From the NCBI RefSeq assembly GCF_019175385.1, contig NC_083343.1, forward strand, positions 51,482,457-51,546,456: a DNA stretch of 64,000 bases, in the 5' to 3' direction. Within the stretch, counting starts at the first letter, position 1. Each line of letters begins with the position of its first letter. Made by a program: the position numbers and the translations under genes. The notes beneath the pieces were generated by a model that was not told the DNA's origin, ran no database searches, and saw only the letters and a list, made by a program, of their open reading frames with translations. Of the stretch, positions 3,247 to 41,254 are shown in pieces. This stretch comes from Lycium barbarum (Eukaryota; Streptophyta; Magnoliopsida; Solanales; Solanaceae).

Positions 3247-3397
3247 AATTTTCCTTAGGGGGTCTCATGACACTTCGGGGAGGTTCCTTTCTTTCCTTCA
3301 AAATTCTTTTCAATGTTACATTTGCCATCAACGTCATTCACCTCTCGTCGCACTTCTCGGTTCCTTACAACGTTATCATAAGCCCACGTCATACCAA

Positions 3398-4594: not shown

Positions 4595-4633
4595 CCTGTT
4601 TATGAATGTGGCGCGCTACACACCATAAGCAGG
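4595..4633 (-). other. Leader hairpin with GCGCGC loop, A internal 1
   Basis: In sense: CCTGCTTAT, GG, TGTG, loop TA-GCGCGC, CACA, TTC, ATAAACAGG. The outer stem has nine positions with one C-A mismatch and the inner stem has four pairs. The six-base palindrome is at 4611-4616. The hairpin lies 44 nt downstream of the primer-binding site, the same place as in B, F, G and I. Confidence 0.6.
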
Positions 4634-4677
4634 ACTCTACCGGACACGAATTTGCAGACAACCCCTAGGACAAACCT

Positions 4678-4689
4678 GCTCTGATACCA
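4678..4689 (-). promoter_or_regulatory. Primer-binding site, A internal 1
   Basis: The minus strand reads TGGTATCAGAGC, complementary to the 3' end of plant initiator tRNA-Met. It is separated from the LTR end (TGTGACA) by AAG. Confidence 0.95.
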
Positions 4690-4694
4690 CTTTG

Positions 4695-4721
4695 TCACAC
4701 CCTAATTCCGCTAGGGTGTGA
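4695..4721 (-). other. U5-end hairpin of LTR A2
   Basis: TCACACCCTA (4695-4704) and TAGGGTGTGA (4712-4721) are perfectly complementary over ten bases. The stem ends two bases from the LTR terminus, next to the primer-binding site. LTRs A3, A4 and M carry the same stem. Confidence 0.65.
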
Positions 4722-5556
4722 TGGGCACCCGACCCTTAGTTAGGGTCAAGCGAACCCTCAGAGTCTTGCTGCACATAAAAGTCACGTCAAACTTTTTAAA
4801 TCAAACAAGATAAAGTACGTAGTAAAAATTTTTTTTATTTTTTTTCAGAGATATTCTTTCTCATAGCTTCCGAGCAGAACAAATCTACAGTCATACAAAA
4901 TTCAATACATAGCACAGACTGGCATATCGGCTGACGGAGCCGCTGACAGACTGACAAACAATACCCACGACGCTGTCTGCAAAGTCTCTAACATAAGTCC
5001 AGAAGCATAACATGCAAACTCTAACTCGGCGGCACTCCGGAAACAAAAGGAGCTTGCCATCTGCACTGGAATATCTTCTATATTGTCTTCAACTCAGCTG
5101 GGAGTACCTGCGCGGCATGAAACGCAGCCCCCGAAGAAAGGGGTCAGTACAGAATATGTACTGAGTATGTAAAGCGGAAATGTAACAAATATAATCATAA
5201 ACTGAACCATAAGTATAGAGATATAGCGGACAGAATCAAACCCGAATCCGAATCAGAAAAATAAAATAAAATATATATAGTGAATACAGGGTATGACAGG
5301 GAGAGTCGTAATCTGAATCAGAGGTATTGAGTATGACAGACCGAATTCATATCCGAATCAGACTTTCAGAAATGCAACAGACAGAGTCATGCATGCAGAG
5401 TCATAAGCATATACAGAAAGTAAGGGTATTAACCAAAGTACCAAAATACTTATTCTACAATTACAGATCGCATGTCCGAAGAGGTGCCGAAGATACAGAA
5501 TACAGAATGGAGTACGGAACGCACAGAGGTGATGTCACACGCCAGACGAGGTACAG

Positions 5557-5755
5557 AACGTACAGAATAATCAGACGATGTCATATATCGGACGGAATGC
5601 AAAACGTACAGAATGCTCAGATGATGTCATGTATCGGACGAAATACAGAACGTACAGAATGCTCAGACGATGTCATATATCGGACGGAATGCAAAACGTA
5701 CAGAATGCTCAGATGATGTCACGTATCGGATGAAATACAGAGCGTACAGAATACC
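5557..5755. repeat. 46-bp minisatellite in LTR A2
   Basis: There are just over four units starting AACGTACAGAATGCTCAGA. Two alternating variants (CATATATCGG and CATGTATCGG) suggest a 92-bp higher-order period. Equivalents lie at 10457-10655 and 15367-15565. Confidence 0.9.
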
Positions 5756-5818
5756 AGAATGCTTATTTTCCGGACAAAATTATACATATCAAAAACATGT
5801 AATTTTTTTCACAGATGA

Positions 5819-6060
5819 CAGATCCCGGCCCTGTGATAAGGGACGCGGTAACAGAATCATCATATGTCAAAATCATATGTCAAAGTATACATATGCAGAT
5901 AGCAGATAACAGATCCCGGCCCTGTGATAAGGGAGGCGGTAACAGAATCATCATATGTCAAAATCATATGTCAAAGTATACATATGCAGATAGCAGATAA
6001 CAGATCCCGGCCCTGTGATAAGGGACGCGGTAAAAGAGCCCGGCCCTCAAGGAAGAGACG
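5819..6060. repeat. 91-bp minisatellite in LTR A2
   Basis: There are two full units (5819-5909, 5910-6000) and a partial third. Each begins CAGATCCCGGCCCTGTGATA and contains a doubled CATATGTCAAA. Equivalents lie at 10719-10935 and 15629-15845. Confidence 0.9.
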
Positions 6061-6180
6061 CGGTGAACAGAATCATATGCCATCCTGGACGCCATCCCCA
6101 TATCATCATATACAGATAACAGAACCCGGCTCTCCCACCGAGGGGCGCGGTGAACAATGCAGAGGAAACGCACGGTAACA

Positions 6181-6372
6181 GAACCTGGCCCGGGTCGCAG
6201 TGAAAGAGGCATTAAGTCATGCATGAAGCAGAAGAAGGGCACGATAACAGAACCTGGCCCGGGACGCAGTGAAAGAGACATTAAGTCATGCATGAAGCAG
6301 AAGAAGGGCACGATAACAGAACCTGGCCCGGGACGCAGTGAAAGAGACATTAAGTCATGCACGAGCAGAGTC
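6181..6372. repeat. 69-bp minisatellite in LTR A2
   Basis: Three units (6181, 6250, 6319) start GAACCTGGCCCGGGACGCAG. Because 69 is a multiple of three, both strands stay open across it (151 codons on minus, 102 on plus) and would encode 23-residue repeats. I treat these frames as a by-product of the repeat. Equivalents lie at 11081-11270 and 15991-16180. Confidence 0.9.
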
Positions 6373-6555
6373 ATGAGAAACCATATGCACATAAATCCAG
6401 ACTCAATGAATAGGCACACTTGCCGACATTCGAAGACTCAGAAACGAGTTTCGGTCTCTTCCTAGTTAGTATCAGGAAGTTATGAGCATTTGGAATACAG
6501 AAACCTCTTCGGACTTTTAAGCGATCCGAGATCGTACATAATGAACGTTAAGGCT

Positions 6556-6860
6556 TACAGAGAATACTCATATCAGAATACTCGGACCAGAAAACTCATA
6601 TCCAGATATTCATATCCAAATACTTATATCGGAATACTTATATCGGAATACCCGTATCAGAACACTTATACCAGACACTCGTACCAGTATACCTAACTCA
6701 GAATACTTATATCAGAATATTCATATCGAATTATTTATATATATATATCGGGTACTTATATCAAAATACTTATATCTGAATATTTACATCAGAATGCTTA
6801 TATCAAAATATTCGAATCGGATCGTTCGTATCGGGATGTATATATCAAAATAGTCGAGTC
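6556..6860. repeat. Short A/T-rich tandem repeats (about 14 bp) in LTR A2
   Basis: These are many imperfect units of the type ATACTTATATCGGA and TCAGAATACTCATA. In LTR A4 a 42-bp stretch of this block is missing between two copies of TATATCAAAATA. Confidence 0.8.
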
Positions 6861-8664
6861 AGAATACTTATAACTGAGTTACTAAATACTTATAGCAAAC
6901 TCGGAGCAATATCCAAGGTTTCTCTTAATTATCATACGGAAGTAGGGCAAATAAAACAATACAAATAGCTCTCGGGGTGGTGGGCCCACCTTGGGTCAAG
7001 TCGAGGTGACATACGTCAGACTATAATTGTTTGGTCTTAACAGGTCATCCACAAAAGTTTCAAAGCGATTCTCTCACATTTGCGCAATTTATAGATGTTT
7101 GAATAGTTTCCAACAAAATGTAGCAATTGTGCTTCAATGCCATTGAATGAATAGTACCTAAAATCCAACTCGGATTTCCACGAGTAGAGTAACCCCCGAG
7201 CCTTCAAATCCAAACCTAACATACCTAGGACATGCCAAAAGAAGGAGGGGTACATCTTTACATACCTTTCTTGCCTTGTACGCTCGCCAAATTCAATTCC
7301 CGTTTCGTCAAAAATCTGCAATTGGTCATCTTTGCCAAATGTTGACTATAGGGCTTTGGCATTCAATCTTGAATTAGTACTTGTCTACCGAAATTTCGGC
7401 AGCACCTCCCCTGTAAATACAACGCCCCGAGAATTTAACTCGGCTCAAAACAATCAACAACAACCCAACACAACATCAACAGTAACAACAACCAATATAA
7501 AACATAACATAACACAACTAGTCCCCTTTTTTTTCCAACATAATGTGGTAACTTCCATTCCGACTTCCCATTTCCAAACCAAACTCAATGTTTTCATATT
7601 CCTTACTAATCAAAATCATTGCAATACCATTTGGAAACATTTCATACCATTTCTACAAAATAGTCACAAAATATACAAAATGTACCAACTTTCCGCCAAA
7701 GCCATAATGCCTCCAAAACTTCTAATCTTTAACATTCATATTCATAGTATGTCTCCATCTTCCAATTTCATCAACAACTACCAAAGTCCACATTTAAATT
7801 CTTATTTTCACAATTATACAAAAATCATATAAAAATCACATAAATTCCCCATAACGACATACAACTTATTTCAACCAAATTCCTTCAACTTTCACTTCCA
7901 ATATAGATTTCACCATAGCCACAACTATATTACAACATAAAATTCAACTCATATTATCAATACAACTTTGCACCTACACGGCTCATGCACGCATACATAC
8001 CTACCATGCAAACTTCCATATTTTCATGAATTCTATCCATTTCTACACACCATAACATAAACAAAACCTTCAGAACATATAAAAGGGAATGAAATCTTAC
8101 CTTTCTTCACAACTTCTTCACTTAACTAGGGTTAGAATTTTGTTCCAAAGAGTAGTTCTCTCCTTCCATCAATCATACCATGTTGAAGAGGGCCTTCAAA
8201 TTAGTGGAATACTAGAAGAAAATAATTTTTTTGGATCAAATTTGGAGGCTCCAATTTTTTCTCTCCATGGCCGAAATTGGAGTGGTCTTTCTTTCTCTTC
8301 AAGGTTCTTGAAAATTCTAAGGATAAAGATGAAATATATAGCCCTCTTTATCATATTTGGCACATGGAAAATTAATTAAAATCCATGGGCTTGGGCCATT
8401 GCATGGCCGGCCACCCCTCTCTCTTTTGGGCCTCATTTTCTTATATATTTTTTTTAGCCCAATTGGCTACAAATCTTGTTTTGTAATTCCCAAAACAAAT
8501 TTCCGAAATTCCTATTTTGTCCCTAGCCTTCCTCGGTATTTCCGCACCAATGTTATCATAGCCGGCACGTTCATACTAAGTAAGGTCTAAATATAGCCTC
8601 ATTCATTACAAGTCAAGTTATCTCAAAAAAAAAATTCGAATATGCAAAAATGCCGGATGTAACA

Positions 8665-9598
8665 TCCTCCCCCCCTTTAGAACATTCGTCCTCGAATGTT
8701 CAATTGACCTTAGGGGGTCTCATGACACTTCGGGGAGGTTCCTTTCTTTCCTTCAAAATTCTTTTCAATGTTACATTTGCCATCAACGTCATTCACCTCT
8801 CGTCGCACTTCTCGGTTCCTTACAACGTTATCATAATCCCACGTCATACCAAACAGATTCATAACTAGAGCCAAACACACAGAAGCATATCGGACAGATT
8901 CATAATCTGGGTCAGATGTATTGGACTATGGTGGACAGATTCGTAGTCAGAGTCAGACGTATGGAAGTATGTCAGACAGATCCGTGATCAGAATCAGGCG
9001 TACAGAGATGTATCACACAGAAATGTAATCAGGGTTCGTCTATTCTTTTACAACTTTTGTATCCTAACCTCCGCTTCGTCCCATGCATTCCGTTTAATAA
9101 AACCTTTCGTTTATCGCAACATTAGTCGCTGGAACTCGGCTCTTGATCAATATGGTAACCAGAGGAGAATCATACACATACATATACGTTTACTACTATC
9201 TTACCTGTAAACGTATCCAACCACTTTTCAAATTCGCCAAATTCCCGAGCGGTATTGCACCTTTCTATTTTTTTTTCTTTTTGCCCATTTAGTCCGCCTT
9301 GGTCTGCGCGACTCCTGCAAGGGTACTAGCTGCCCCACACATTCTCTTTTCCTTTAAGTTACTCGAAATTTCTATTTATATGTATTACTTATGCCGTCGT
9401 ATATAGGGCTCACATAAGGAATTTCATTTCCTATGACTTGGCTCTATCGCACGATCTGAGACAGAAAGAAGGTCAACAATCCCTAAATGCCCCGTAGCCT
9501 CCTGTTTATGAATGTGGCGCGCTACACACCATAAGCAGGACTCTACCGGACACGACTTTGCAGACAACCCCTAGGACAAACCTGTTCTGATACCACTT
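8665..9598 (-). mobile_element. Element A internal region 2 (short form, 934 bp)
   Basis: It has the same layout as internal region 1 but lacks the 548-bp segment with the 5S-like domain. The join reads ACTTAT then GCCGTCG near 9390. The polypurine tract is at 8665-8680, the minisatellite at 8853-9034, the leader hairpin at 9501-9539 and the primer-binding site at 9584-9595. That site has one change (GTTCTGATACCA on plus). No protein-coding capacity is visible. Confidence 0.85.
9501..9539 (-). other. Leader hairpin with GCGCGC loop, A internal 2
   Basis: It has the same stem and loop as in internal region 1, with the palindrome at 9517-9522. Confidence 0.6.
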
Positions 9599-12500
9599 TG
9601 TCACACCCTAATTCCGCTAGGGTGTGATGGGCACCCGACCCTTAGTTAGGGTCGAGCGAACCCTCAGAGTCTTGCTGCACATAAAAGTCACGTCAAACTT
9701 TTTAAATCAAACAAGATAAAGTACGTAGTAAAATTTTGTTTTCTTTTTTTCAGAGATATTCTTTCTCGTAGCTTCCGAGCAGAACAAATCTACAGTCATA
9801 CAAAATTCAATACATAACACAGACTGGCATATCGGCTGACGGAGCCGCTGACAGACTGACAAACAATACCCACGACGCTGTCTGCAAAGTCTCTAACATA
9901 AGTCCAGAAGCATAACATACAAACTCTAACTCGGCGGCACTCCGGAAACAAAAGGAGCTTGCCATCTGCACTGGAATATCTTCTATATTGTCTTCAACTC
10001 AGCTGGGAGTACCTGCGTGGCATGAAACGCAGCCCCCGAAGAAAGGGGGTCAGTACGGAATATGTACTGAGTATGTAAAGCGGAAATGTAACAAATATAA
10101 TCATAAACTGAACCATAAGTATAGAGATATAACGGACAGAATCAAACCCGAATCCGAATCAGAAAAATAAAATATAAATATATATAGTGAGTACAGGGTA
10201 TGACAGGCAGAGTCGTAATCTGAATCAGAGATATAGAGTATGACAGACCGAATTAATATCCGAATCAGACTTTCAGAAATGCAACAGACAGAGTCATGCA
10301 TGCAGAGTCATAAGCATATACAGAAAGTAAGGGTATTAACCAAAGTACCAAAATACTTATTCTACAATTACAGATCGCATGTCCTAAGAGGTACCGAAGA
10401 TACATAATGGAGTACGAAACGTACAGAGGTGATGTCACACGCCAGACGAGGTACAGAACGTACAGAAAAATCAGACGATGTCATATATCGGACGGAATGC
10501 AAAACGTGCAGAATGCTCAGATGATGTCATGTATCGGACGAAATACAGAACGTACAGAATGCTCAGACGATGTCATATATCAGACGGAATGCAGAACGTA
10601 CAGAATGCTCAGATGATGTCATGTATCAGACGGAATACAGAGCGTACAGAATACCAGAATGCTTATTTTCTGGACAAAATTATACATATCAAAAACATGT
10701 AATTTTTTTCACAGATGAGCAATCCCGGCCTTGTGATAAGGGACGCGGTAACAGAATCATCATATGTCAAAATCATATGTCAAAGTATACATATGCAGAT
10801 AGGAGATAACAAATCCCGGCCCTGTGATAAGGGACGCGGTAACAGAATCATCATATGTCAAAATCATATGTCAAAGTATACATATGCAGATAGCAGATAA
10901 CAGATCCCGGCCCTGTGATAAGGGACGCGGTAACAGAGCCCGGCCCTCTGGGAAGAGACGCGGTGAACAGAATCATATGCCATCCTGGCCGCCATCCCCA
11001 TATCATCATATACAGATAACAGAACCCGGCTCTCCCACCGAGGGGCGCGGTGAACAATGCAGAGGAAACGCACGGTAACAGAACCCGGCCCGAGACGCAG
11101 TGAAAGAGGTATTAAGTCATGCATGAAGCAGAAGAAGGGCACGATAACAGAACCTGGCCTGGGACGCAGTGAAAGAGACATTAAGTCATGCATGAAGCAG
11201 AAGAAGGGCACGATAACAGAACCTGGCCCGGGACGCAGTGAAAGAGACATTAAGTCATGCACGAGCAGAGTCATGAGAAACCATATGCACATAAATACAG
11301 ACTCAATGAATAGGCACACTTGCCGACATTCGAAGACTCAGAAACGAGTTTCGGGCTCTTCCTAGTTAGTATCAGTAAGTTATGAGCATTTGGAATACAG
11401 AAACCTCTTCGGACTTTTAAGCGATCCGAGATCATACATAATGAACGTTAAGGCTTACAGAGAATACTCATATCAGAATACTCGGACCAGAAAACTCATA
11501 TCCAGATATTCATAGCCGAATACTTATATCGGAATACTTATATCGGAATACCCGTATCAGAACACTTATACCAGACACTCGTACCAGTATACCTAACTCA
11601 GAATACTTATATCAGAATATTCATATCGAATTATTTATATATGTATATATCGGGTACTTATATCAAAATACTTATATCTGAAAATTTACAACAGAATGCT
11701 TATATCAAAATATTCAAATCGGATCGTTCGTATCGGGATGTTTATATCAAAATAGTCGAGTCAGAATACTTATAACTGAGTTACTAAATACTTATAGCAA
11801 ACTCGGAGCAATAGCCAAGGTTTCTCTTAATTATCATACGGAAGTAGGGCAAATAAAACAATACAAATAGGTCTCGGGGTGGTGGGCCCACCTTGGGTCA
11901 AGTCGAGGTGACATACGTCAGACTATAATTGTTTGGTCTTAACAGGTCATCCACAAAAGTTTCAAAGCGATTCCCTCACATTTGCGCAATTTATAGATGT
12001 TTGAATAGTTTCCAACAAAATGTAGCAATTGTGATTCAATGCCATTGAATGAATAGTACCTAAAATCCAACTCGGATTTCTTCGAGTAGAGTAACCCCCG
12101 AGGCTTCAAATCCAAACCTAACATACCTAGGACATGCCAAAAGAAGGAGGGGTACAACTTTACATACCTTTCTTTCCTTGTACGCTCGCCAAATTCAATT
12201 CCCGTTTCGTCAAAAATCTGCAATTGGTCATCTTTGCCAAATGTTGACTATAGGGCTTTGGCATTCAATCTTGAATTAGTACTTGTCTACCGAAATTTCG
12301 GCAGCACCTCCCCTGTAAATACAACGCCCCGAGAATTTAACTCGGCTCAAAACAATCAACAACAACCCAACACAACATCAACAGTAACAACAACCACTAT
12401 AAAACACAACATAACACAACTAGTCCCCTTTTTTTTCCAACATAATGTAGTAACTTCCATTCCGACTTCCCATTTCCAAACCAAACTCAATGTTTTCATA

Positions 12501-13567
12501 TTCCTTACTAATCAAAATCATTGCAATACCATTTGGAAACATTTCATACCATTTCTACAAAATAGTCACAAAATATACAAAATGTACCAACTTTCCGCCA
12601 AAGCCATAATGCCTCCAAAACTTCTAATCTTTAACATTCATATTCATAGTATGTCTCCATCTTCCAATTTCATCAACAACTACCAAAGTCCACATTTAAA
12701 TTCTTATTTTCACAATTATACAAAAATCATATAAAAATCACATAAATTCCCCATAACGACATACAACTTATTTCAACCAAATTCCTTCAACGTTCACTTC
12801 CAATATAGATTTCACCATAGCCACAACTATATTACAACATAAAATTCAACTCATATTATCAATACAACTTTGCACCTACACGGCTCATGCACGCATACAT
12901 ACCTACCATGCAAACTTCCATATTTTCATGAATTCTATCCATTTCTACACACCATAACATAAACAAAACCTTCAGAACATATAAAAGGGAATGAAATCTT
13001 ACCTTTCTTCACAACTTCTTCACTTAACTAGGGTTAGAATTTTGTTCCAAAGAGTAGTTCTCTCCTTCCATCAATCATACCATGTTGAATAGGGCCTTCA
13101 AATTAGTGGAATACTAGAAGAAAATAATTTTTTTGGATCAAATTTGGAGGCTCCAATTTTTTCTCTCCATGGCCGAAATTGCAGTGGTCTTTCTTTCTCT
13201 TCAAGGTTCTTGAAAATTCTAAGGATAGAGATGAAATATATAGCCCTCTTTATCATATTTGGCACATGGAAAATTAATAAAAATCCATGGGCTTGGGCCA
13301 TTGCATGGCCGGCCACCCCTCTCTCTTTTGGGCCTCATTTTCTTATATTTGTTTTTGAGCCCAATTGGCTACAAATCTTGTTTTGTAATTCCCAAAACAA
13401 ATTTCCGAAATTCCAATTTTGTCCCTAGCCTTCCTCGGTATTTCCGCACCAATGTTATCATAGCCGGCACGTTCATACTAAGTAAGGTCTAAATATAGCC
13501 TCATTCATTACAAGTCAAGTTATCTCAAAAAAAAAAATTCGAATATGCAAAAATGCCGGATGTAACA
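9599..13567 (-). mobile_element. LTR A3 (3969 bp)
   Basis: It runs from TGTCACACCC to GGATGTAACA and is flanked by a primer-binding site (left) and a polypurine tract (right), like A2. It differs from A2 by scattered substitutions and small indels only, so the array is young relative to most of the window. It carries the same minisatellites (10457-10655, 10719-10935, 11081-11270, 11456-11770). Confidence 0.9.
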
Positions 13568-14508
13568 TCCTCCCCCCCTTTAGAACATTCGTCCTCGAAT
13601 GTTCAATTGACCTTAGGGGGTCTCATGACACTTCGGGGAGGTTCCTTTCTTTCCTTCAAAATTCTTTTCAATGTTACATTTGCCATCAACGTCATTCACC
13701 TCTCGTCGCACTTCTCGGTTCCTTACACCGTTATCATAATCCCACGTCATACCAAATAGATTCATAACTAGAGCCAGACACACAGAAGCATATCGGACAG
13801 ATTCATAATCAGGGTCAGATGTATTGGACTATGGCGGACAGATTCGTAGTCAGAGTGAGACGTATGGAAGTATGTCAGACAGATCCGTGATCAGAATCAG
13901 GCGTACAGAGATGTATCACACAGAAATGTAATCAGGGTTCGTCTATTCTTTTACAACTTTTGTATCCTAACCTCCGCTTCGTCCCATGCATTCCGTTTAA
14001 TAAAACCTTTCGTCTATCGCAACATTAGTCGCTGGAACTCGGCTCTTGATCAATATGGTCACCAGAGGAGAATCATACACATACATATACGTTTACTACT
14101 ATCTTACCTGTAAACGTATCCAACCACTTTTCAAATTCGCCAAATTCCCGAGCGGTATTGCACCTTTCTGTTTTTTTTTTCTTTTTCTTTTTGCCCATTT
14201 AGTCCGCCTTGGTCTGCGCGACTCCTGCAAGGGTACTAGCTGCCCCACACATTCTCTTTTCCTTAAAGTTACTCCAAATTTCTATTTATATGTAATATTT
14301 ATGCCGTCGTATATAGGGCTCACATAAGGAATTTCAATTCCTATGACTTGGCTCTAACGCACGATCTAAGACAGAAAGAAGGTCAACAATCCCTAAATGC
14401 CCCGTAGCCTCCTGTTTATGAATGTGGCGCGCTACACACCAAAAGCAGGACTCTACCGGACACGACTTTGCAGACAACCCCTAGGACAAACCTGCTCTGA
14501 TACCACTT
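13568..14508 (-). mobile_element. Element A internal region 3 (short form, 941 bp)
   Basis: It shares the 548-bp deletion of internal region 2, so these two descend from one deleted ancestor. The minisatellite is at 13755-13936, the leader hairpin at 14411-14449 (loop palindrome 14427-14432, one extra stem mismatch) and an intact primer-binding site at 14494-14505. No coding capacity is visible. Confidence 0.85.
14411..14449 (-). other. Leader hairpin with GCGCGC loop, A internal 3
   Basis: The loop is identical to that of the other two A copies. The outer stem carries an additional T to A change at 14442. Confidence 0.55.
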
Positions 14509-17500
14509 TGTCACACCCTAATTCCGCTAGGGTGTGATGGGCACCCGACCCTTCGTTAGGGTCGAGCGAACCCTCAGAGTCTTGCTGCACATAAAAGTCA
14601 CGTCAAACTTTTTAAATCAAACAAGATAAAGTACGTAGTAATTTTTTTTTTTTCAGAGATATTCTTTCTCGTAGCTTCCGAGCAGAACAAATCTACAGTC
14701 ATACAAAATTCAATACATAACACAGACTGGCATATCGACTGAAGGAGCCGCTGACAGACTGACAAACAATACCCACGACGTTGTCTGCAAAGTCTCTAAC
14801 ATAAGTCCAGAAGCATAACATACAAACTCTAACTCGGCGGCACTCCGGAAACAAAAGGAGCTTGCCATCTGCACTGGAATATCTTCTATATTGTCTTCAA
14901 CTCAGCTGGGAGTACCTGCGCGGCATGAAACGCAGCCCCCGAAGAAAGGGGGTCAGTACGGAATATGTACTGAGTATGTAAAGCGAAAATGTAACAAATA
15001 TAATCATAAACTGAACCATAAGTATAGAGATATAGCGGACAGAATCAAACCCGAATCTGAATCAGAAAAATAAAATATAAATATATATAGTGAGTACAGG
15101 GTATGACAGGCAGAGTCGTAATCTGAATCAGAGGTATAGAGTATGACAGACCGAATTCATATCCGAATGAGACTTTCAGAAATGCAACAGACAGAGTCAT
15201 GCATGCAGAGTCATAAGCATATACAAAAAGTAAGGGTATTAACCAAAGTACCAAAATACTTATTCTACAATTACAGATCACATGCCCGAAGAGGTGCCGA
15301 AGATACAGAATACAGAACGGAGTACGGAACGTAAAGAGGTGATGTCACACGCCAGACGAGGTACAGAACGTACAGAATAATCAGACGATGTCATATATCG
15401 GACGGAATGCAAAACGTGCAGAATGCTCAGATGATGTCATGTATCGGACGAAATACAGAACGTACAGAATGCTCAGACGATGTCATATATCGGACGGAAT
15501 GCAGAACGTACAGAATGCTCAGATGATGTCATGTATCAGACGGAATACAGAGCGTACAGAATACCAGAATGCTTATTTTCCGGACAAAATTATACATATC
15601 AAAAACATGTAATTTTTTTCACAAATGAGCAATCCCAGCCATGTGATAAGGGACGCGGTAACAGAATCATCATATGTCAAAATCATATGTCAAAGTATAC
15701 ATATGCAGATAGCAGATAACAGATCCCGGCTCTGTGATAAGGGACGCGGTAATAGAATCATCATATGTCAAAATCATATGTCAAAGTATACATATACAGA
15801 TAGCAGATAACAGATCCCGGCCCTGTGATAAGGGACGCGGTAACAGAGCCCGGCCCTCTGGGAAGAGACGCGGTGAACAAAATCATATGCCATCCTGGCC
15901 GCCATCCCCATATCAACATATACAGATAACAGAACCCGGTTCTCCCACCGAGGGGCGCGGTGAACAATGCAGAGGAAACGCACGGTAACAGAACCTGGCC
16001 CGAGACGCAGTGAAAGAGGCATTAAGTCATGCATGAAGCAGAAGAAGGGCACGATAACAGAACCTGGCCCGGGACGCAGTGAAAGAGACATTAAGTCATG
16101 CATGAAGCAGAAGAAGGGCACGATAACAGAACCTGGCCCGGGACGCAGTGAAAGAGACATTAAGTCATGCACGAGCAGAGTCATGAGAAACCATATGCAC
16201 ATAAATCCAGACTCAATGAATAGGCACACTTGCCGACATTCGAAGACTCAGAAACGAGTTTCGGGCTCTTCCTAGTTAGTATCAGGAAGTTATGAGCATT
16301 TGGAATACAGAAACCTCTTTGGACTTTTAAGCGATCCGAGATCGTACATAATGAACGTTAAGGCTTACAGAGAATACTCATATCAGAATACTCGGACAAG
16401 AAAACTCATATCCAGATATTCATAGCCGAATACTTATATCGGAATACTTATATCGGAATACCCGTATCAGAACACTTATACCAGACACTCGTACCAGTAT
16501 ACCTAACTCAGAATACTTATATCAGAATATTCATATCGAATTATTTATATATATATATCGGGTACTTATATCAAAATACTTATATCTGAATATTTACATC
16601 AGAATGCTTATATCAAAATAGTCGAGTCAGAATACTTATAACTGAGTTACTAAATACTTATAGCAAACTCGGAGCAATAGCCAAGGTTTCTCTTAATTAT
16701 CATACGGAAGTAGGGCAAATAAAACAATACAAATAGGTCTCGGGGTGGTGGGCCCACCTTGGGTCAAGTCGAGGTGACATACGTCAGACTATAATTGTTT
16801 GGTCTTAACAGGTCATCCACAAAAGATTCAAAGCGATTCTCTCACATTTGCGCAATTTATAGATGTTTGAATAGTTTCCAACAAAATGTAGCAATTGTGA
16901 TTCAATGCCATTGAATGAATAGTACCTAAAATCCAACTCGGATTTCTTCGAGTAGAGTAACCCCCGAGGCTTCAAATCCAAACCTAACATACCTAGGACA
17001 TGCCAAAAGTAGGTGGGGTACAGCTGTACATACCTTTCTTGCCTTGTACGCTCGCCAAATTCAATTCCCGTTTCGTCAAAAATCTGGAATTGGTCATCTT
17101 TGCCAAATGTTGACTATAGGGCTTTGGCATTCAATCTTGAATTAGTACTTGTCTACCGAAATTTCGGCAGCACCTCCCCTATAAATACAACGCCCCGAGA
17201 ATTTAACTCGGCTCAAAACAATCAACAACAACCCAACACAAGATCAACAGTAACAACAACCACTATAAAACACAACATAACACAAGTAGTCCCCTTTTTT
17301 TTTCCAACATAATGTAGTAACTTCCATTCCGACTTCCTATTTCCAAACCAAACTCAATGTTTTCATATTCCTTACTAATCAAAATCATTGCAATACCATT
17401 TGGAAACATTTCATACCATTTCTACAAAATAGTCACAAAATATACAAAATGTACAAACTTTCCGCCAAAGCCATAATGCCTCCAAAACTTCTAATCTTTA

Positions 17501-18432
17501 ACATTCATCTTCATAGTATGTCTCCATCTTCCAATTTCATCAACAACTACCAAAGTCCACATTTAAATTCTTATTTTCACAATTATACAAAAATCATATA
17601 AAAATCACATAAATTCCCCATAACGACATACAACTTATTTCAACCAAATTCCTTCAACTTTCACTTCCAATATAGATTTCACCATAGCCACAACTATATT
17701 ACAACATAAAATTCAACTCATATTATCAATACAACTTTGCACCTACACGGCTCATGCACGCATACATACCTACCATGCAAACTTCCATATTTTCATGAAT
17801 TCTATCCATTTCTACACACCATAACATAAACAAAACCTTCAGAACATATAAAAGGGAATGAAATCTTACCTTTCTTCACAACTTCTTCACTTAACTAGGG
17901 TTAGAATTTTGTTCCAAAGAGTAGTTCTCTCCTTCCATCAATCATACCATGTTGAAGAGGGCCTTCAAATTAGTGGAATACTAGAAGAAAATAATTTTTT
18001 TGGATCAAATTTGGAGGCTCCAATTTTTTCTCTCCATGGCCGAAATTGGAGTGGTCTTTCTTTCTCTTCAAGGTTCTTGAAAATTCTAAGGATAGAGATG
18101 AAATATATAGCCCTCTTTATCATATTTGGCACATGGAAAATTAATTAAAATCCATGGGCTTGGGCCATTGCATGGCCGGCCACCCCTCTCTCTTTTGGGC
18201 CTCATTTTCTTATATTTTTTTTTGAGCCCAATTGGCTACAAATCTTGTTTTGTAATTCCCAAAACAAATTTCCGAAATTCCAATTTTGTCCCTAGCCTTC
18301 CTCGGTATTTCTGCACCAATGTTATCATAGCCGGCACGTTCATACTAAGTAAGGTCTAAATATAGCCTCATTCATTACAAGTCAAGTTATCTCAAAAAAA
18401 AATTCGAATATGCAAAAATGCCGGATGTAACA
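14509..18432 (-). mobile_element. LTR A4 (3924 bp), 5' outer LTR of the array
   Basis: It runs from TGTCACACCC to GGATGTAACA. To its right there is no polypurine tract but LTR C sequence, so this is the outer 5' LTR in minus sense. It is shorter than A2 and A3, mainly through a 42-bp deletion near 16620 between short direct repeats. Minisatellites are at 15367-15565, 15629-15845, 15991-16180 and 16366-16640. Confidence 0.9.
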
Positions 18433-27832: not shown

Positions 27833-30787
27833 TGTCAGGACCCAACCCCGTAGGCCGCGACTCGTGTCCGAGCAGGACACCTTACGTACCCAGAAACCCC
27901 AAACCAACATATAAATTAGATACATAAATATATAAAGCCAAACGGAGTCACAAGCTATCGTACATAAGCAGATGTAGCGCACAGAAGCCGATAAGGCCAT
28001 CACAGAATATGTATTTCCCAGAACATATACACAACCCACATATGTGTCTACAGACCTCTACGAACAGTAATAACAGAAACATAAGACGGGACAGGGTCCC
28101 GTCGTACCCCTGAATTGCGTACATATATACAATAGCAGAATACTATACCAAAATATAGGCTCCGGATAAAAGAGCGCTCCAAAATAGCAGAACAAAGTCC
28201 TAAGCGGGCGGATCAGCAAACCTGTCGTCTGTACTTGCGCGGCATGAAAACGCAGCCCCCGAAGAAAGGGGGTCAGTACGGAATATGTCCTGAGTTTGTA
28301 AAGCATGAAGTACAGTAGACGAAATCATAACCGGAACAGTAAATACAGAAAATGAGTGCAAAGTCCATGATATCAAACTGTATACTTACAAAACGTAAAT
28401 AATGCATGCAGAAACATATGCCAAATCCGTCCTCAATACGGGACTCGGTGAACAGAACGTGGCGCCACCCCGTCACTGGCGCCATAACACATTATACTTC
28501 AGAGTAGGGAATAGCTCCGTAACATATCATAACATATCAGATGGCCACATCATATCATATCATATCATATCAGAACATAGGTGTACATGGCACATCATAC
28601 TCCGGACCCATGTACATGTCATACCTGCCCCCTCACATCGAGGCACGGCGAACAATGCAGTGGAATACGCTTGATAACAAATACTGGCCCGGGCTCAGTG
28701 AAGGAAGCATTGAGACATCCACGAGTGGAGTAGTGAGAAACTTTTGCATCATAAAATATTTACAAAGACTCGACAGAATAATCCGAATGACAGGTCATTT
28801 AAGAAAGAAATCAGACGATAGTCATAGCACGTACCTTTCGGATGTCGCGGGGGATTATATCGAATTAAAGCTTTTGGTATTGTTTGAACATATCAAAATA
28901 TAACATTTACAGAATCTCGATAGCATAACTCAGATGGAAAATCATATAAAAGAGATTGAACGGTAATCATAGCGTATGCCTTTCGGATGTCACGATGGTT
29001 TATATCAAAATAAGCTTTCTGAAATCGTTTTCATGTTTCAAAATGCATTATGGAAGTCAACGAAATAATTCAAACAAACGTCATATGGTAGTTAGGAGAG
29101 TAGCCAAGAGTTTCCTTTGAATTCTACTTCAGAACAAGTCAAACGGAACAAATCAGAAAAATCCGGGAGTTGTGGGCCCACCTCCGGTCAAACGAGGTGG
29201 CGGACACAAAGTATGTGTAATAAAATTTATGGAGTCTCTTATGAGGGTTTTAAGGTAATCGGATTTTATTTACACAAGTTCTAGGTATTTAAACAACTTT
29301 TCTAACCATTTGCAACATAATTAGTTCAATTCCACTGAATGGAAAAGGGGCAAATTTAGACGCGGATTCCGAAGAGTAGAGTAGTCCCCGAGGTCCAACT
29401 TCAAACCTAATACATCTAGGACATGCCAAGAGAAGGAAAGGGTGAGCTTTACATACCTTTTCCGCTTCTTACGCTCCTCCAATTTCAAGTCCCGAATGCC
29501 CCAAAATCTACAATTGGTCACAAATACCAAACATTTATTATAAGCCTTTAAGAATTCAATCTTAACTCAACACTTGTCTACAAACATTTGGGCAGCATCT
29601 CCCCTGTTTATATGCCTAGCCCAGAATTACAATTCAGCAACCAACACATCAACAACAATACCAAATATATTAACATCATTTCCAACACCAACATATGCCG
29701 TAAAACAGCCCGCACATTATTTTCCAAATTTTCCAACCAACCAATTAGCGATATAATTATTTAATAATTTTATTTCCGTAAAGAAGTCGAAATTAACACT
29801 AACAACATCCTCCGCATTCTACAAGTTAAATACATTTTTTTTTTCATCCAAAATTTTCTTCAAACCCCATTCCACAATTCAACCATACCAACAAACGAAT
29901 TTATCACGCTATTTTCTTCGTTCTAATCCGTTAAAACTCTAAATAAACTTGTTAACAATGAAAAGGAACCTTATTCATACCTTAAGTGCACAGCCACCAC
30001 GTCCACCCTCTTCTCGTTAGTTGATTTTTAGCTCAAATCGAAAGCAACGCGACGTAGAACACTTTTCTCTTCATGGGCTTTGGGATTCGGGGCTCCGATT
30101 TTGGTCAAAATTTGATTTTCTCTCTAGGCTCTCCTCTCTCTTTTTCTCTAGAGTTTTCTAGGTTCTCTTGGTCTAAAAATGAGGGAGAGAAACCGAAAAT
30201 TTTAGTTAAAAAGCATGGGTAATGGGCCTGACCCGAATTGGATTTGGGTTGGGCCGGATTTACTGTTCAACTCGACCTCCTGCCTTAAAACGTTCATATC
30301 TCCTTATCCTGATGTCACCTGTAGGCCCACGACCTACCGTTGGAAAGATAATTCAATTATATACAACCTTTATTTCTGGGAGTTTTCCCAAATTCCAAAC
30401 TTATAATGTCGTTTTTGCCCCTCCAAGTTAGGTCATCCGAAAACGTTTTCTTAAATCGTCCTTTTGGAGGGCTTACACTCATTTTTGGCTTATGGGTCCT
30501 TCTTAGGACTTGCTCAAATTCACATGTACTACCCATATATCTCTTCATATGTCTTTTATAAGGTCCCGATATGTGGGCCCCACCTTAACTTACTGTAACG
30601 AGGGTTTTTCGTTAAATAACTTATAAACCAATTCACACCATATTGTCTCCAAATGTCGTATGTGTATATATTCTTAGACTTAGATCACCCAATCTTCATC
30701 CTTAATCCTTGTTTGACTTAACTCCTTTTCGAGCTCGTACTACGCCGTCTATGATTTTGTAGCGCGAAATTTTTTCGGGGTGTAACA
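27833..30787 (-). mobile_element. 3' LTR of element G (2955 bp)
   Basis: It runs from TGTCAGGACCCAACCCC to TTCGGGGTGTAACA and is nearly identical to the 5' LTR at 33232-36183. A polypurine tract follows on the right (minus sense 3' LTR). Inside are GTGGCGCCAC (28459-28468) with a second GGCGCC copy downstream, a short ATATC-type repeat near 28553, and the conserved GCAGCATCTCCCC block near 29593. The frames it contains lack known domains. Confidence 0.92.
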
Positions 30788-31071
30788 TCCTCCCCCCCTT
30801 TAGAACATTCGTCCACGAATGTTCGACTGTCCTTATGAAGCTTCATCATATTTCGGGGAGGTCCCCTTACCAACGATGTACTCGTATTTAATCAGCCCAC
30901 TTATGAGGGAATTCATTTCCTAACTCCTGCTTTTCCTATTCTAACATATCTTTCGCTTTTATATTCAACAATGCTATTGTCCTTTCTTTTCCGGCCCAAC
31001 CATCCACATCTTTCACTTCTTATCACACTTTTCGGTTACTTACAACGTTATCATAATCCCACGTCATATCA

Positions 31072-31383
31072 AACAAATTCATAACTTGGGTCAGACGCAT
31101 AGAAGCATATCAGACAGATCCATAATCAGAGTCAGATGTACTAAACTATGGCGGACAGATTCATAGTCAAAGTCAGACGTATGGAAGTATGTCAGACAAA
31201 TCCGTGATCAGAATCAGATGTACAGAGATGTATCAGACAGATTCGTAATTAGAGTCGAACGTGCAGAGGCATATCAGACAGAAACATAATCAGATTCAGA
31301 AGTACAGAGGCATAATAGACAGAGCCTCATCAAAGTCAGAGGCGCAGACGTATAACACACAAAATCTTAATTAGAATCAGACC
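31072..31383. repeat. Minisatellite of about 41 bp, G internal region
   Basis: There are about eight imperfect units of the type AGACAGATTCGTAATTAGAG plus GTACAGAGGCATATC. It is homologous to the shorter arrays in element A. Confidence 0.85.
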
Positions 31384-32029
31384 ACTTCCACTAAGGCTTC
31401 AGTGATTTACGAAAATTTCCCCTGTCGACGTTTCATTACTCACCTTGATCGTTGTACCACGAGTTATTTCATCAAAACCTGTTCACTCATTTAGAGACTT
31501 GTTCGTCAAATTTCCACACAAATAGGTTTATGTGTCGCTTGTCGACTCTTTCGAAGGTTTTGCTTAATCACATTTCTTATCCTTCATCTTTTCTAATGTC
31601 CGTACTCATTTTCTTTTCCAGTTATCGTCGCACTAGACTAATTTGTAATGTAGTCAGGGTTTGTCTATTCTTTGACAACATTCGTACCCTAATCTCCGCT
31701 TCGCTTCATGCATTCCGTTTAGTAAAACCTTCCGTCTATCGCAACATTAGTCGCCGAGACTCAGCTCTTGATCAAAATGGTCACCAAAGGAAAATCATAC
31801 ACATACATATACGTTTCCCACTATCTTACCTGCAAACGTCTCCAACCGCTTTTCAAATTCGCCCCAAATTTCCGAGCGGTATTGCACTTTTTCCTTTCAC
31901 CCATTTAGTCCGCCTCGGTCTGCGCGACTCCTGTGAGGGTACTAGCTACTCCACACGTTCTCTTTTTCTTTAGGTTACCCCAAATTTCCATTTATATCTT
32001 ATACTTACACTTGTGAAAATTTTTGTATC

Positions 32030-32132
32030 CTTCCCAGGGGGTCACCCATCCCAGAATTGCTCTGGCCCCAGCACGCCTAACCTCAAAACTTTCATGCGTT
32101 TTGATGCGTTAATGCTAACATAATTGCGTCGA
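32030..32132 (-). ncRNA. 5S rRNA-like domain in element G
   Basis: On the minus strand from 32132: a diverged start (GACGCAATTATG), GCATTAACGCAT (compare GCACTAATGCAC), an A-box-like GAGGTTAGGCGTGCTGGGGC, then a nearly perfect C-box GGATGGGTGACCCCCTGGGA. Order and spacing match plant 5S rRNA over about 100 nt. The 3' arm is not recognisable, and TTTT follows about a dozen nt later. The A-box and C-box parts are closer to 5S than in element A. A functional gene is unlikely, because the 3' arm that closes the 5S structure is missing. Confidence 0.78.
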
Positions 32133-32406
32133 CTGCCCCACACGACCTTTGTCAAAAAGTTCCCGTAACGGGCCCCACTCCGGTTTAAACCATACAATTA
32201 CCATATTGCTCTTCTGAATCTTCAATATTCACTTTCATCTGGGGTTTCTAGATTCACACTGGTGGCGGGGACATCTCAGTCGCCCTTGCTTTTAACCACT
32301 GGGTCTTTAATCATTTTAAAATTGTTCCGTTGCCGTCACTGAATAATATTCTACAGAAATCATACACACATAGGAAATTCTAGGAAACTCATATACTTAT
32401 AAATGA

Positions 32407-32944
32407 TCAATCTCGGGCCTGACCTGGGGAGCTGCTGTGGGAAATGTGTCCATCATCATCGTCTGTCTGCCCCCCACTCATCTGGCTCCCGCTATTACCT
32501 GCATCCGAATTGGAGGAGTATAGGTAGCCCGGCAACTCCTAGTTCACTGATGGCCAAGACAAAGGACTGGAGTAGGGCGTAACACTCTCCGGGGAGGCCT
32601 GTCTAACATAGTGCTCCACCACAGGAGCTGCTGGCATGTCCCCGGAAACCTCCTCCTCCGGCGTCCCAGAGGAATGCTCTAGTGGATCTGTATCGTGGCT
32701 ATCCTCCTCCCTGGGGTAAGAAACTCTAGAGGTATCGTCGCCGGATCCTCCGAAGGGTCAGTATCATAACTATCTTCTCTGAGATCCCCTGCTCTGGGAT
32801 CAGAAACTCTGGAGGAATTGTCTCTGGATCCTCCGAAGGGTCTGTCTCAATCGAGTAGCTGGGGCTCTGCTTACTCGGTCCTGGTGATATCCTGGGGGCC
32901 TTCTTAGCACCCCTATCCCCATCGTCAGGAGCTGTCCTTTTCAT
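32407..32944 (-). pseudogene. Decayed acidic, internally repeated ORF of element G
   Basis: This is the first sense frame after the leader. It opens MKRTAPDDGDRGAKKAPRI, a short basic stretch, and becomes acidic and rich in Ser and Pro. A motif of the form DTDPSEDPxTIPxEFL occurs in three diverging copies with a DNA period near 86 bp (copies around 32870, 32770 and 32680). The copies lie in different frames because of single-base changes in G runs. An in-frame stop is at 32539-32541, after which the same frame stays open and ends near 32409 in an Asp-rich QTDDDDGH tail. I recognise no known domain. It could be a degenerate gag-like or chromatin-binding protein, or a captured host fragment. 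The elements A in this window lack it. Confidence 0.55.
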
Positions 32945-33059
32945 TCTTTGTCAATCTACAGTCATCTGCAAAAAGAGGATCAGAAACGATTTCCCAAATG
33001 CTGACACTGTTGCTCGTTGGAGCCTCGCTGTAGATACAGCAATTCGTAGGAAGAGAAAC

Positions 33060-33231
33060 ATCCTAACCATACAGCTCTATCGCACGATCTACGATTCAAA
33101 GAAAGGGTAACATCCTAAATGTCCTGTAGCCTCCTGTTTATAGATGTGGTGCACAACACACCGATAAACAAGACTCTACTAGACACGGCCTGTAGACATT
33201 CCGAGGACAAACCTCGCTCTGATACCACTTC
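33060..33231 (-). promoter_or_regulatory. Conserved 5' leader and primer-binding site of element G
   Basis: The primer-binding site TGGTATCAGAGC (33216-33227 on minus) is followed by the leader shared with A, B, F and I, ending in the AGATCGTGCGATAGAGCTG block near 33080-33100. Confidence 0.85.
33133..33172 (-). other. Leader hairpin with GTGCAC loop, element G
   Basis: In sense: CTTGTTTAT, CGG, TGTG, TT-GTGCAC, CACA, TCT, ATAAACAGG. All nine outer pairs form (one U-G) and the inner stem has four pairs. The loop palindrome is at 33149-33154, and the hairpin lies 43 nt after the primer-binding site. Confidence 0.65.
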
Positions 33232-36183
33232 TGTCACGACCCAACCCCGTAGGCCGCGACTCGTGTCCGAGCAGGACACCTTACGTACCCAGTAACCCCG
33301 AACCAACATATAAATTAGATACATAAATATATAAAGCCAAACGGAGTCACAAGCTATCGTACATAAGAAGATGTAGCGCACAGAAGCCGATAAGGCCATC
33401 ACAGAATACGTATTTCCCAGAACATATACACAACCCACATATGTGTCTACAGACCTCTACGAACAGTAATAACAGATACATAAGACGGGACAGGGCCCCG
33501 TCGTACCCCTGAATAGCGTACATATATACAGTAGCAGAATACTATACCAAAATATAGGCTCCGGATAAAAGAGCGCTCCAAAATAGCACAAAGTCCTAAG
33601 CGGGCGGATCAGCAAACCTGTCGTCTGTACCTGCGCGGCATGAAAATGCAGCCCCCGAAGAAAGGGGGTCAGTACGGAATATGTACTGAGTTTGTAAAGC
33701 ATGAAGTACAATAGACGAAATCATAACCGGAACAGAAAATACAGAAAATGAGTGCAAAGTCCAGGATATCAAAATGTATACTTACAAAACGTAAATAATG
33801 CATGCAGAAACATATGCCAAATCCGGCCCCAATACGGGACTCGGTGAACAGAAGGTGGCGCCACCCCGTCACTGGCGCCACAACACATCATACTTCAGAG
33901 TACGGAATAGCTCCGTAACATATCATAACATATCAGATGGCCACATCATATCATATCATATCAGAACAGAACATAGGTGTACATGGCACATCATACTCCG
34001 GACCCATGTACATGTCATACCTGCCCCCTCACATCGAGGCACGGCGAACAATGCAGTGGAATACGCTTGATAACAAATCCTGGCTCGGGCTCAGTGAAGG
34101 AAGCATTAAGGCATCCACGGTGGAGTAGTGAGAAACTTTTGCATCATAAAATATTTACAAAGACTCAACAGAATAATCCGAATGACAGGTCATTTAAGAA
34201 AGAAATCAGACGATATTCATAGCACGTACCTTTCGGATGTCGCGGGGGATTATATCGAATTAAAGCTTTTGGCATTGTTTGAACATATCAAAATATAACA
34301 TTTACAGAATCTCGATAGCATAACTCAGATGGCAAATCATATAAAAGAGATTGAACGGTAATCATAGCGTATGCCTTTCGGATGTCACGATGGTTTATAT
34401 CAAAATAAGCTTTCTGAAATCATTTTCATGTTTCAAAATGCATTATGGAAGTCAATGAAATAATTCAAACAAACGTCATATGGTAGTTAGGAGAGTAGCC
34501 AAGAGTTTCCTTTGAATTCTACTTCAGAACAAGTCAAACGGAACAAATCAGAAAAATCCGGGAGTAGTGGGCCCACATCGGGTCAAACGAGGTGGCAGAC
34601 ACAAAGTATGTGTAATAAACTTTATGGAGTCTCTTATGAGGGTTTTAAGGTAATCGGATTTTATTTACACAAGTTCTAGGTATTTAAACAACTTTCCTAA
34701 CCATTTGCAACATAATTAGTTCAATTCCACTGAATGGAAAAAGGGGCAAATTTAGACGCGGATTCCGAAGAGTAGAGTAGTCCTCGAGGTCCAACTTCAA
34801 ACCTAATACATCTAGGACATGCCAAGAGAAGGAAAGGGTGAGCTTTACATACCTTTTCCGCTTCTTACGCTCCTCCAATTTCAAGTCCCGAATGCCCCAA
34901 AATCTACAATTGGTCACAAATACCAAACATTGATTATAAGCCTTTAAGAATTCAATCTTAACTCAACACTTGTCTACAAAAATTTGGGCAGCATCTCCCC
35001 TGTTTATATGCCTAGCCCAGAATTACAATTCAGCAATCAACACATCAACAACAATACCAAATATATTAACATCATTTCCAACACCAACATATGCCGTAAA
35101 ACAGCCCGCACATTATTTTCCAAATTTTCCAACCAACCAATTCGCGATATAATTATTTAATAATTTTATTTCCGTAAAGAAGTCGAAATTAACACTAACA
35201 ACATCCTCCGCATTCTACAAGTTAAATACATTTTTTTTTTCATCCAAAATTTTCTTCAAACCCCATTCCACAATTCAACCATACCAACAAACGAATTTAT
35301 CACGCTATTTTCTTCGTTCTAATCCGTTAAAACTCTAAATAAACTTGTTAACAATGAAAAGGAACCTTATTCATACCTTAAGTGCACAGCCACCACGTCC
35401 ACCCTCTTCTCTTTAGTTTATTTTTAGCTCAAATCGAAGGCAACGCGACGTAGAACACTTTTCTCTTCATGGGCTTCGGGATTCGGGGCTCCGATTTTGG
35501 TCAAAAGTTGATTTGCTCTCTAGGCTCTCCTCTCTCTTTTTCTCTAGAGTTTTCTAGGTTCTCTTGGTCTGAAAATGAGGGAGAGAAACCGAAAATTTTA
35601 GTTAAAAACCATGGGTAATGGGCCTGACCCGAATTGGATTCGGGTTGGGCCGGATTTACTGTTCAACTCGACCCTCCTGCCTTAAAACGTTCATATCTCC
35701 TTATCCCGATGTCACCTGTAGGCCCACGACCTACCGTTGGAAAGATTATTCGATTATCTACAACCTTTATTTCTGGGAGGTTTCCCAAATTCCAAACTTA
35801 TAATGCCGTTTTTGCCCCTCCAAGTTAGGTCATCCGAAACGTTTTCTTAAATCGTCCTTTTGGACGGCTTACACTCATTTTTGGCTTATGGGTCCTTCTT
35901 AGGACTTGCTCAAATTCACATGTACTACCCATATATCTCTTCATATGTCTTTTATATGGTCCCGATGTGTGGGCCCCACCTTAACTTACTGTAACGAGGG
36001 TTTTTCGTTAAATAACTTATGAACCAATTCACACCATATTGTCTCCAAATGTCGTATGTGTATATATTCTTAGACTTAGATCACCCAATCTTCATCCTTA
36101 ATCCTTGTTTGACTTAACTCCTTTTCGAGCTCGTACTACGCCGTCTATGATTTTGTAGCGCGAAATTTTTCCGGGGGGTAACA
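33232..36183 (-). mobile_element. 5' LTR of element G (2952 bp)
   Basis: It runs from TGTCACGACCCAACCCC to CCGGGGGGTAACA, followed by the target-site duplication ATAAC (36184-36188). It differs from the 3' LTR by few changes, so the insertion is relatively young. Its U5-end hairpin (33234-33243 with 33250-33259) forms ten pairs in sense, three of them G-U. Confidence 0.92.
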
Positions 36184-41211: not shown

Positions 41212-41254
41212 ACTCTACTAGACACGGCTCGTAGACACTTCCTAGGATTGAACT

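What the first reader, a model, noticed from the sequence alone, without database searches (positions are those of the whole stretch)
32030..32132. 5S rRNA-derived domain inside the internal region of long-LTR non-autonomous elements
Seen: elements G (32030-32132) and A copy 1 (3961-4062) carry, in sense, a colinear 5S-like sequence of about 100 nt with A-box and C-box parts in correct order and spacing, followed within about 15 nt by TTTT or TTTTT. In G the C-box part (GGATGGGTGACC) is intact. Known: Cassandra-type TRIM elements carry 5S sequence in their short LTRs. Here it lies between leader and polypurine tract of elements with 3-4 kb LTRs, which does not match that description. Inference: an internal Pol III promoter, or an RNA domain used for trafficking or packaging (ribosomal protein L5 or TFIIIA binding), may have been captured.
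Basis: partly seen in the sequence, partly recalled or inferred. Interest (0 to 1): 0.86.

Follow-up and report, generated by a model that had tools for sequence, protein, structure and literature searches.

The report
5S rRNA relic inside long retrotransposons
Two related, gene-less plant retrotransposons carry, in the stretch between their long terminal repeats, a worn copy of most of the 5S ribosomal RNA gene; it is a real ancient capture in an unusual place, but it looks more like a decaying passenger than a working part.

Summary
On the minus strand, in sense with both elements, G 32131-32030 and A copy 1 4062-3962 match plant 5S rRNA from nt 1/2 to ~102 (G 73 of 101 identical, no gap; A 68 of 101). 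A plant 5S model finds only these two places in the window (E 1.9e-8 and 1.2e-6). The last ~17 nt of 5S are missing. The copies share 16 identical changes and homologous flanks, so one capture preceded the split of the two families. G is an intact non-autonomous element (2.95-kb LTRs, PBS, PPT, ATAAC target duplication) in a Solanaceae-like genome. A copies 2 and 3 lost the module. A function is less well supported: helices are kept no better than random substitution predicts, and A and G differ more inside the module (27/100) than in the flank (47/381). Only the box C end is well kept. I read it as a capture during reverse transcription, now mostly a passenger: a new placement of 5S sequence relative to Cassandra. 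No copies outside the window could be examined; nine own-genome searches did not complete.

The parts
32030..32131 (-). 5S rRNA-derived module of element G: 5S nt 1/2 (32131/32130) to nt 102 (32030)
   Evidence: 73/101 identical to plant 5S, no gap; plant 5S model 37.5 bits E 1.9e-8, sequence-only 49.6 bits E 2e-14; Rfam RF00001 18.2 bits
3962..4062 (-). 5S rRNA-derived module of element A copy 1: 5S nt 1 (4062) to nt ~100 (3962)
   Evidence: 68/101 columns identical, one gap; 31.1 bits E 1.2e-6; 36.6 bits E 2.3e-10
32043..32084 (-). box A to box C core of the G module (pattern shared with A)
   Evidence: with up to 3 mismatches the pattern matches only here and at 3974-4015; 0 in 100 shuffles
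3974..4015 (-). box A to box C core of the A copy 1 module
27833..36183 (-). element G, complete non-autonomous LTR retrotransposon
   Evidence: LTRs 97.8% identical over 2,950 aligned columns, TSD ATAAC at 27828-27832 and 36184-36188
33232..36183 (-). G 5' LTR (2,952 bp)
27833..30787 (-). G 3' LTR (2,955 bp)
33216..33227 (-). G primer binding site TGGTATCAGAGC (initiator tRNA-Met type, recalled)
33074..33230 (-). G leader, conserved with other elements of the window (73.7-94.3% identity)
30788..30801 (-). G polypurine tract AAAGGGGGGGAGGA
31647..32029 (-). sequence downstream of the G module, homologous to A 3567-3961
   Evidence: 47 differences in 381 aligned sites
32205..32291 (-). sequence upstream of the G module, homologous to A 4190-4272, so both flanks of the module are shared
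   Evidence: local score 24 against a maximum of 16 in 100 mononucleotide shuffles
3210..4692 (-). A internal region 1, carries the module (1,483 bp)
8665..9598 (-). A internal region 2 (934 bp), module deleted
13568..14508 (-). A internal region 3 (941 bp), same deletion
4693..18432 (-). A tandem array: LTRs 4693-8664, 9599-13567, 14509-18432 with internal regions 2 and 3 between; internal region 1 and a partial LTR (2702-3209) precede it

Best explanation
A and G are two families of gene-less, long-LTR (LARD-type) elements, probably carried by Ty3/Gypsy helpers of a Solanaceae-like plant. Their common ancestor took up a piece of host 5S rRNA (nt 1 to ~102, sense, 3' end missing) into its internal region. 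Shown: 5S origin, position, sense orientation, shared changes and shared flanks on both sides, hence one origin. Inferred: the capture happened by template switching during reverse transcription, when minus-strand synthesis jumped onto a packaged 5S RNA near nt 102, copied to its 5' end and jumped back; a 5' edge at 5S nt 1 and a missing 3' end fit that. Since then the module has ridden along as a passenger and is decaying, mostly by transitions; deletion has already removed it from A copies 2 and 3. Element RNA is made from the LTRs as usual, not from the 5S boxes (inferred).
For: Register match over ~100 nt and E-values. 18 sites changed in both A and G (hypergeometric p 6.7e-5), 16 of them to the same base. 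Homologous flanks downstream and upstream. No significant structural constraint. A-G differences inside the module 27/100 against 47/381 in the flank, p 0.0009. Loss in A copies 2 and 3. A Pol III transcript from 5S nt 1 would start ~1.1 kb (G) or ~0.6 kb (A) past the PBS (coordinates) and so could not serve as a transposition template (inference).
Against: The box C end (nt 80-100) has 3 inferred changes in 21 sites against 42 in 79 elsewhere (p 0.009), which passenger decay alone does not predict; part of this may be an alignment-edge or base-composition effect. G keeps slightly more helix pairs than the neutral mean (12 of 14 in helices II+III against 9.9, p 0.12; 16 of 19 against 13.7-13.9, p 0.10-0.15), not significant. 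The two copies are one lineage, so the sample is small. The 5' edge at nt 1 is judged on decayed sequence. The capture route was not tested directly.
Confidence: 0.66

Rival explanations
1. The module is a working type-1 Pol III promoter (TFIIIA on box A, IE and box C) that makes a short RNA of about 115 nt ending at the T-run, or that opens chromatin or recruits Pol III machinery to the element.
For: The three boxes (positions recalled) are present in order and spacing; box A region 3 (G) and 4 (A) mismatches of 17, IE 1 and 3 of 8, box C region 2 and 2 of 20; box C end is the least changed part; TTTT (G) or TTTTT (A) begins about 11-12 nt after the end of the match.
Against: A has a one-base insertion in or next to box C and 3 of 8 mismatches in IE. 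The T-run is expected in 18% (TTTT) or 4.6% (TTTTT) of 30-nt stretches. Outside the box C end the module diverged faster than its flank between A and G. No expression data here.
Confidence: 0.17
2. The 5S sequence came second-hand: a Cassandra solo LTR or a 5S-headed SINE (SINE3 type) inserted into the ancestral element and then decayed, leaving the 5S part.
For: Cassandra also keeps the boxes and varies around and between them (PMC10853983, sections 14 and 16 read), similar to the pattern here. SINE3 insertion has been proposed as the source for Cassandra and Ajax (PMC10886601, sections 3.7 and 4 read).
Against: The match here runs to 5S nt 1, longer than the ~70-bp core common to all Cassandras of that study, though some Cassandras exceed 100 nt. 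No TG..CA with 5-bp direct repeat within ~300 bp each side of the G module (exact search in G only, weak after decay). No Cassandra or SINE3 sequence was available for comparison.
Confidence: 0.2
3. The module is an RNA domain kept for trafficking or packaging (binding of ribosomal protein L5 or TFIIIA to a 5S-like fold).
For: Sense orientation in the genomic RNA; the minimum-energy fold of G contains pairing like helices II and III; two double changes in G helix III keep pairing, and helices II+III keep 12 of 14 pairs.
Against: Pair retention does not differ significantly from the neutral expectation, sequence-only model beats the structured one, fold energy is ordinary, the 3' strand of helix I is absent, A folds otherwise.
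Confidence: 0.04
4. Chance similarity, or similarity confined to box C.
For: The 5' part alone is weak: nt 1-47 scores 11 (G) and 14 (A), reached by 28 and 3 of 5,000 shuffles; Rfam scores are below threshold.
Against: Whole-module statistics and gapless register over ~100 nt in G.
Confidence: 0.01

Closest known systems
Cassandra (plant TRIM with 5S in its LTRs)
   Same: Non-autonomous LTR element of plants, no coding sequence, Met-type PBS, 5S boxes A/IE/C; tandem arrays are reported for Cassandra (PMC7215508 abstract) and seen here for A.
   Different: 5S lies in the internal region, once per element, not in both LTRs; LTRs 3-4 kb instead of about 200-400 bp; element 8.35 kb instead of 563-968 bp (PMC10853983 section 12). 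A Pol III transcript could not carry the PBS (inference).
LARD (large retrotransposon derivatives)
   Same: Long LTRs, long non-coding internal region, PBS and PPT, presumed helper-dependent (LARDs as non-coding, helper-dependent elements: PMC7215508 introduction; LTR length recalled).
   Different: No 5S domain in a LARD turned up in the literature searches named in the report; internal regions here (2.4 and 1.5 kb) are shorter than the ~3.5 kb recalled for barley LARDs.
Ajax and other TRIMp3 elements
   Same: 5S promoter part captured by a non-autonomous LTR element (PMC10886601).
   Different: Ajax is 421-434 bp, from ribbon worms, with the 5S part in the LTR.
SINE3 (5S-headed SINEs)
   Same: 5S-derived sequence inside a retroelement, boxes kept best.
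   Different: SINE3 are non-LTR elements with the 5S part as head at their 5' end; here the module is buried in an LTR element.

Membership tests
5S rRNA-derived sequence | Colinear homology to 5S rRNA beyond a single box | tested here: met
5S rRNA-derived sequence | Reaches the Rfam RF00001 gathering score (a functional-looking 5S gene) | tested here: not met
   18.2 bits against 38 in G, none for A
Cassandra | 5S region inside the LTR (25-75% of LTR positions; PMC10853983) | tested here: not met
   module lies between PBS/leader and PPT; only two 5S hits in the window, none in an LTR of A or G
Cassandra | Element under 1 kb (563-968 bp; PMC10853983) | tested here: not met
   G 27833-36183 = 8,351 bp
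Cassandra | Met-type PBS, no coding region | tested here: met
   PBS TGGTATCAGAGC (Met assignment recalled); no Pfam match in 11 of the 27 listed internal ORFs, among them all 10 on the sense strand
LARD | Long LTRs, PBS, PPT, target site duplication | tested here: met
   G; for A the LTRs, PBS and PPT only
LARD | Non-coding internal region | tested here: met
   11 of 27 listed ORFs of 50 aa or more tested (all 10 on the sense strand, 1 of 17 on the other), no Pfam match; two of the 11 reach into a G LTR
LARD | Internal region conserved among genomic copies | not testable with these tools
   The genome search gave no answer in nine tries; only A and G could be compared
Functional type-1 Pol III promoter | Intact box A, IE and box C, followed by a T-run | tested here: inconclusive
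   boxes recognisable with mismatches, A has a one-base insertion in or next to box C; T-run not beyond chance by itself
Functional type-1 Pol III promoter | Pol III transcription | not testable with these tools
   no RNA or ChIP data
SINE3 | 5S head at the 5' end of an element with a LINE-like tail and its own target duplications | not tested
   no reference available; only LTR-type TG..CA ends were searched, in G

The most novel reading that the evidence does not exclude
Long-LTR, gene-less elements of a Solanaceae-like plant carry a live internal 5S promoter: TFIIIA and Pol III bind box A-IE-box C in the middle of the element and make a short RNA, or keep the locus open, giving an internal Pol III unit in an otherwise Pol II-driven retroelement, a layout unlike Cassandra.
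Probability: 0.13. Interest if true: 0.75.

Novelty: new variant of a known kind. Interest (0 to 1): 0.45.

Why it matters
In the papers read here, 5S capture by LTR elements is described only for tiny elements, where Pol III is thought to drive the whole transcript. A capture in the internal region of an 8-kb element shows that 5S RNA can be taken up where it cannot serve that purpose. It fits uptake of packaged host RNA as a route, gives a natural comparison for which parts of 5S survive without that role, and warns that 5S annotation by short box matches will pick up such relics.

Tried and rejected
Rfam over the whole window gave nothing at E<=1; of the two narrow cuts, one gave a sub-threshold 5S hit and one gave none. 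The first pair count against the Rfam structure line used a wrong register (known 5S itself paired at 10 of 19) and is discarded; only that call's A-G difference counts are used. One search corrected the register for most pairs (5S 18 of 19), and one search uses a hand-made plant 5S structure in which 5S pairs at all 34 positions. Exact-pattern scans of viral contigs and of the bacterial and archaeal genome contigs for copies elsewhere found none; a plant element is not expected there, so this says little. Protein searches with two short ORFs that cross the module found no candidate. The own-genome search for RF00001 did not complete in nine tries. Considered and rejected: chance match; separate captures in A and G (shared changes and flanks argue for one event); a junction artefact at the module's 5' edge (homology resumes upstream).

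Full report
What was checked. The finding claims a 5S-like sequence of ~100 nt inside elements G (32030-32132) and A copy 1 (3961-4062). Alignment with a plant 5S rRNA (typed from recall) gives, on the minus strand, a gapless match of 5S nt 2-102 to 32130-32030 (73 of 101 identical, 22 transitions, 6 transversions) and of nt 1-100 to 4062-3962 (68 identical, 26 transitions, 6 transversions, one gap); scores 45 and 33 stand against a maximum of 15 in 2,000 dinucleotide shuffles of each segment. In a scan of the whole window with another scoring scheme these two places lead (65 and 37; the next best separate place scores 27, on the plus strand near 38461-38820).

Covariance models. A plant 5S model with 34 pairs, built from two recalled sequences, finds exactly two matches in 64 kb, both strands, E<=10: G 37.5 bits (1.9e-8) and A 31.1 bits (1.2e-6). 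A model without pairs finds the same two, with higher scores: 49.6 bits (2e-14) and 36.6 bits (2.3e-10), ending at 5S nt 102 and 101. Rfam's general 5S model is much weaker on them, which I report as a result against an intact 5S fold. The 5' part alone (nt 1-47) is only suggestive by itself (28 and 3 of 5,000 shuffles reach it); its strength comes from lying in register.

Anatomy. G is complete: LTRs 27833-30787 and 33232-36183, 97.8% identical (66 differences in 2,950 columns), TSD ATAAC on both sides, PBS TGGTATCAGAGC at 33227 reading on the minus strand, polypurine tract AAAGGGGGGGAGGA next to the 3' LTR. Its internal region is 2.44 kb. The 5S module starts ~1.1 kb after the PBS and ends ~1.24 kb before the 3' LTR, in sense. 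A is a head-to-tail array with three LTRs of 3,924-3,972 bp, a partial fourth, and internal regions of 1,483, 934 and 941 bp; the second and third lack about 0.55 kb, including the module, at the same junction; since G has the module, I read this as a deletion. Of 27 listed ORFs of 50 aa or more in or overlapping the two internal regions, 11 were tested, all 10 on the sense strand among them, with no Pfam match. The window also holds gag and pol open frames of Ty3/Gypsy type. The PR-RT frame has its best full-length database match in Lycium barbarum (73% identity), with many Nicotiana and Solanum proteins among the 120 listed of 7,974 scored; I therefore call the host Solanaceae-like. A leader next to the PBS is shared by G, A and other elements of the window.

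One capture. At 100 comparable 5S positions, 57 are unchanged in both, 16 carry the same change in A and G, 11 changed only in G, 14 only in A, 2 differ in all three (the one inserted base of A is left out). The A and G flanks are homologous downstream (47 differences in 381 sites) and again upstream at 4190-4272 / 32205-32291 (score 24, maximum of 100 mononucleotide shuffles 16). So the module was most likely in place before the families split.

Is it kept for a function? Structure: 19 of 22 pairs of helices II-IV remain in G and 18 of 22 in A, against 17.3 and 17.7 when the same substitutions are placed at random (p 0.22 and 0.56); for helices II+III alone G has 12 of 14 against 9.9 (p 0.12) and A 11 of 14 against 10.7 (p 0.57); with pairs taken from the Rfam line G has 16 of 19 (p 0.10-0.15) and A 15 of 19 (p 0.53-0.59). 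G leans towards keeping pairs, but not significantly. Folding energies are those of shuffles (z 0.29, 0.06). Rate: A and G differ at 27 of 100 positions in the module against 12% in the flank (p 0.0009), with nt 1-47 at 15/47, nt 48-79 at 10/32 and nt 80-100 at 2/21. Over the small tree, the box C end has 3 events in 21 sites against 42 in 79 (p 0.009), while the split 1-47 against 48-100 is borderline (27 against 18 events, p 0.055). This is compatible with some past or present value of box C, or with chance in a sample of one lineage. The T-run after the module is not telling: 18% of 30-nt stretches on that strand have TTTT, 4.6% TTTTT.

Mechanism. A 5' edge at the first 5S nucleotide and a missing 3' end are what one expects if reverse transcriptase switched from element RNA to an encapsidated 5S RNA near nt 102, ran to its 5' end and switched back. 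This is inference. A transcript started by Pol III at the module would lack PBS and 5' LTR and could not be a template for transposition; this is the key difference from Cassandra, where 5S boxes sit in the LTR and start the element transcript (PMC10886601 introduction).

Compared with what is known. For Cassandra I saw the abstract, outline, introduction and passages of PMC7215508 and sections 12, 14, 16 and passages of PMC10853983. For Ajax, Helenus and SINE3 I saw the abstract, the first two of six parts, sections 3.7 and 4 and passages of PMC10886601. The LTR elements they describe (Cassandra, Ajax, Helenus) carry the small-RNA sequence in the LTR and are about 0.3-1.3 kb long. Seven answered full-text searches of the open PMC library for 5S with LARD, long LTR, internal region or internal domain, Solanaceae, Gypsy or TFIIIA listed no paper that, by title and start of abstract, reports 5S sequence in the internal region of a large element; the other listed papers were not opened, and most subscription papers are not in the library. 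I therefore file it as a new variant of a known kind: 5S capture by a non-autonomous LTR element, in a new place and a much larger element.

Limits. Only two copies, from one window, could be compared. The host genome could not be searched. No expression data. The plant 5S reference and the positions of the boxes rest on recall. Small samples make the box C statistic fragile.

Noticed in passing
2702-18432: Element A forms a head-to-tail LTR-internal-LTR array (units about 97% identical), in which the second and third internal regions share one loss of about 0.55 kb; likely unequal exchange between LTRs.
   Followed up: partly
33074-33230, 46098-46251, 41109-41269, 4535-4692, 21137-21309: The ~160 nt leader next to the PBS is shared by otherwise different elements (73.7-94.3% identity to the G leader), some with gag-pol and some without: a candidate packaging signal through which gene-less families could use the same helper.
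   Followed up: no
38416-41082: A Gypsy-type gag frame (39982-41082, minus) is followed in the same frame by a protease-RT frame (38416-39981) with a single stop codon between them.
   Followed up: no
7188-7832, 12090-12734: An open frame of 214 codons, antisense to the element, sits in the LTR of two of the A units; no Pfam match for the first.
   Followed up: partly
32539-32950: The G internal region upstream of the module holds short overlapping frames rich in Pro, Asp, Glu and Ser, with a 56-nt imperfect repeat at 83-nt spacing; no Pfam match.
   Followed up: partly
P0004 and P0006: Proteins labelled Corynebacterium sp. MC-13 and MC-10 match the plant Gypsy RT at 75-77% identity, probably plant DNA contamination of those assemblies.
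   Followed up: no
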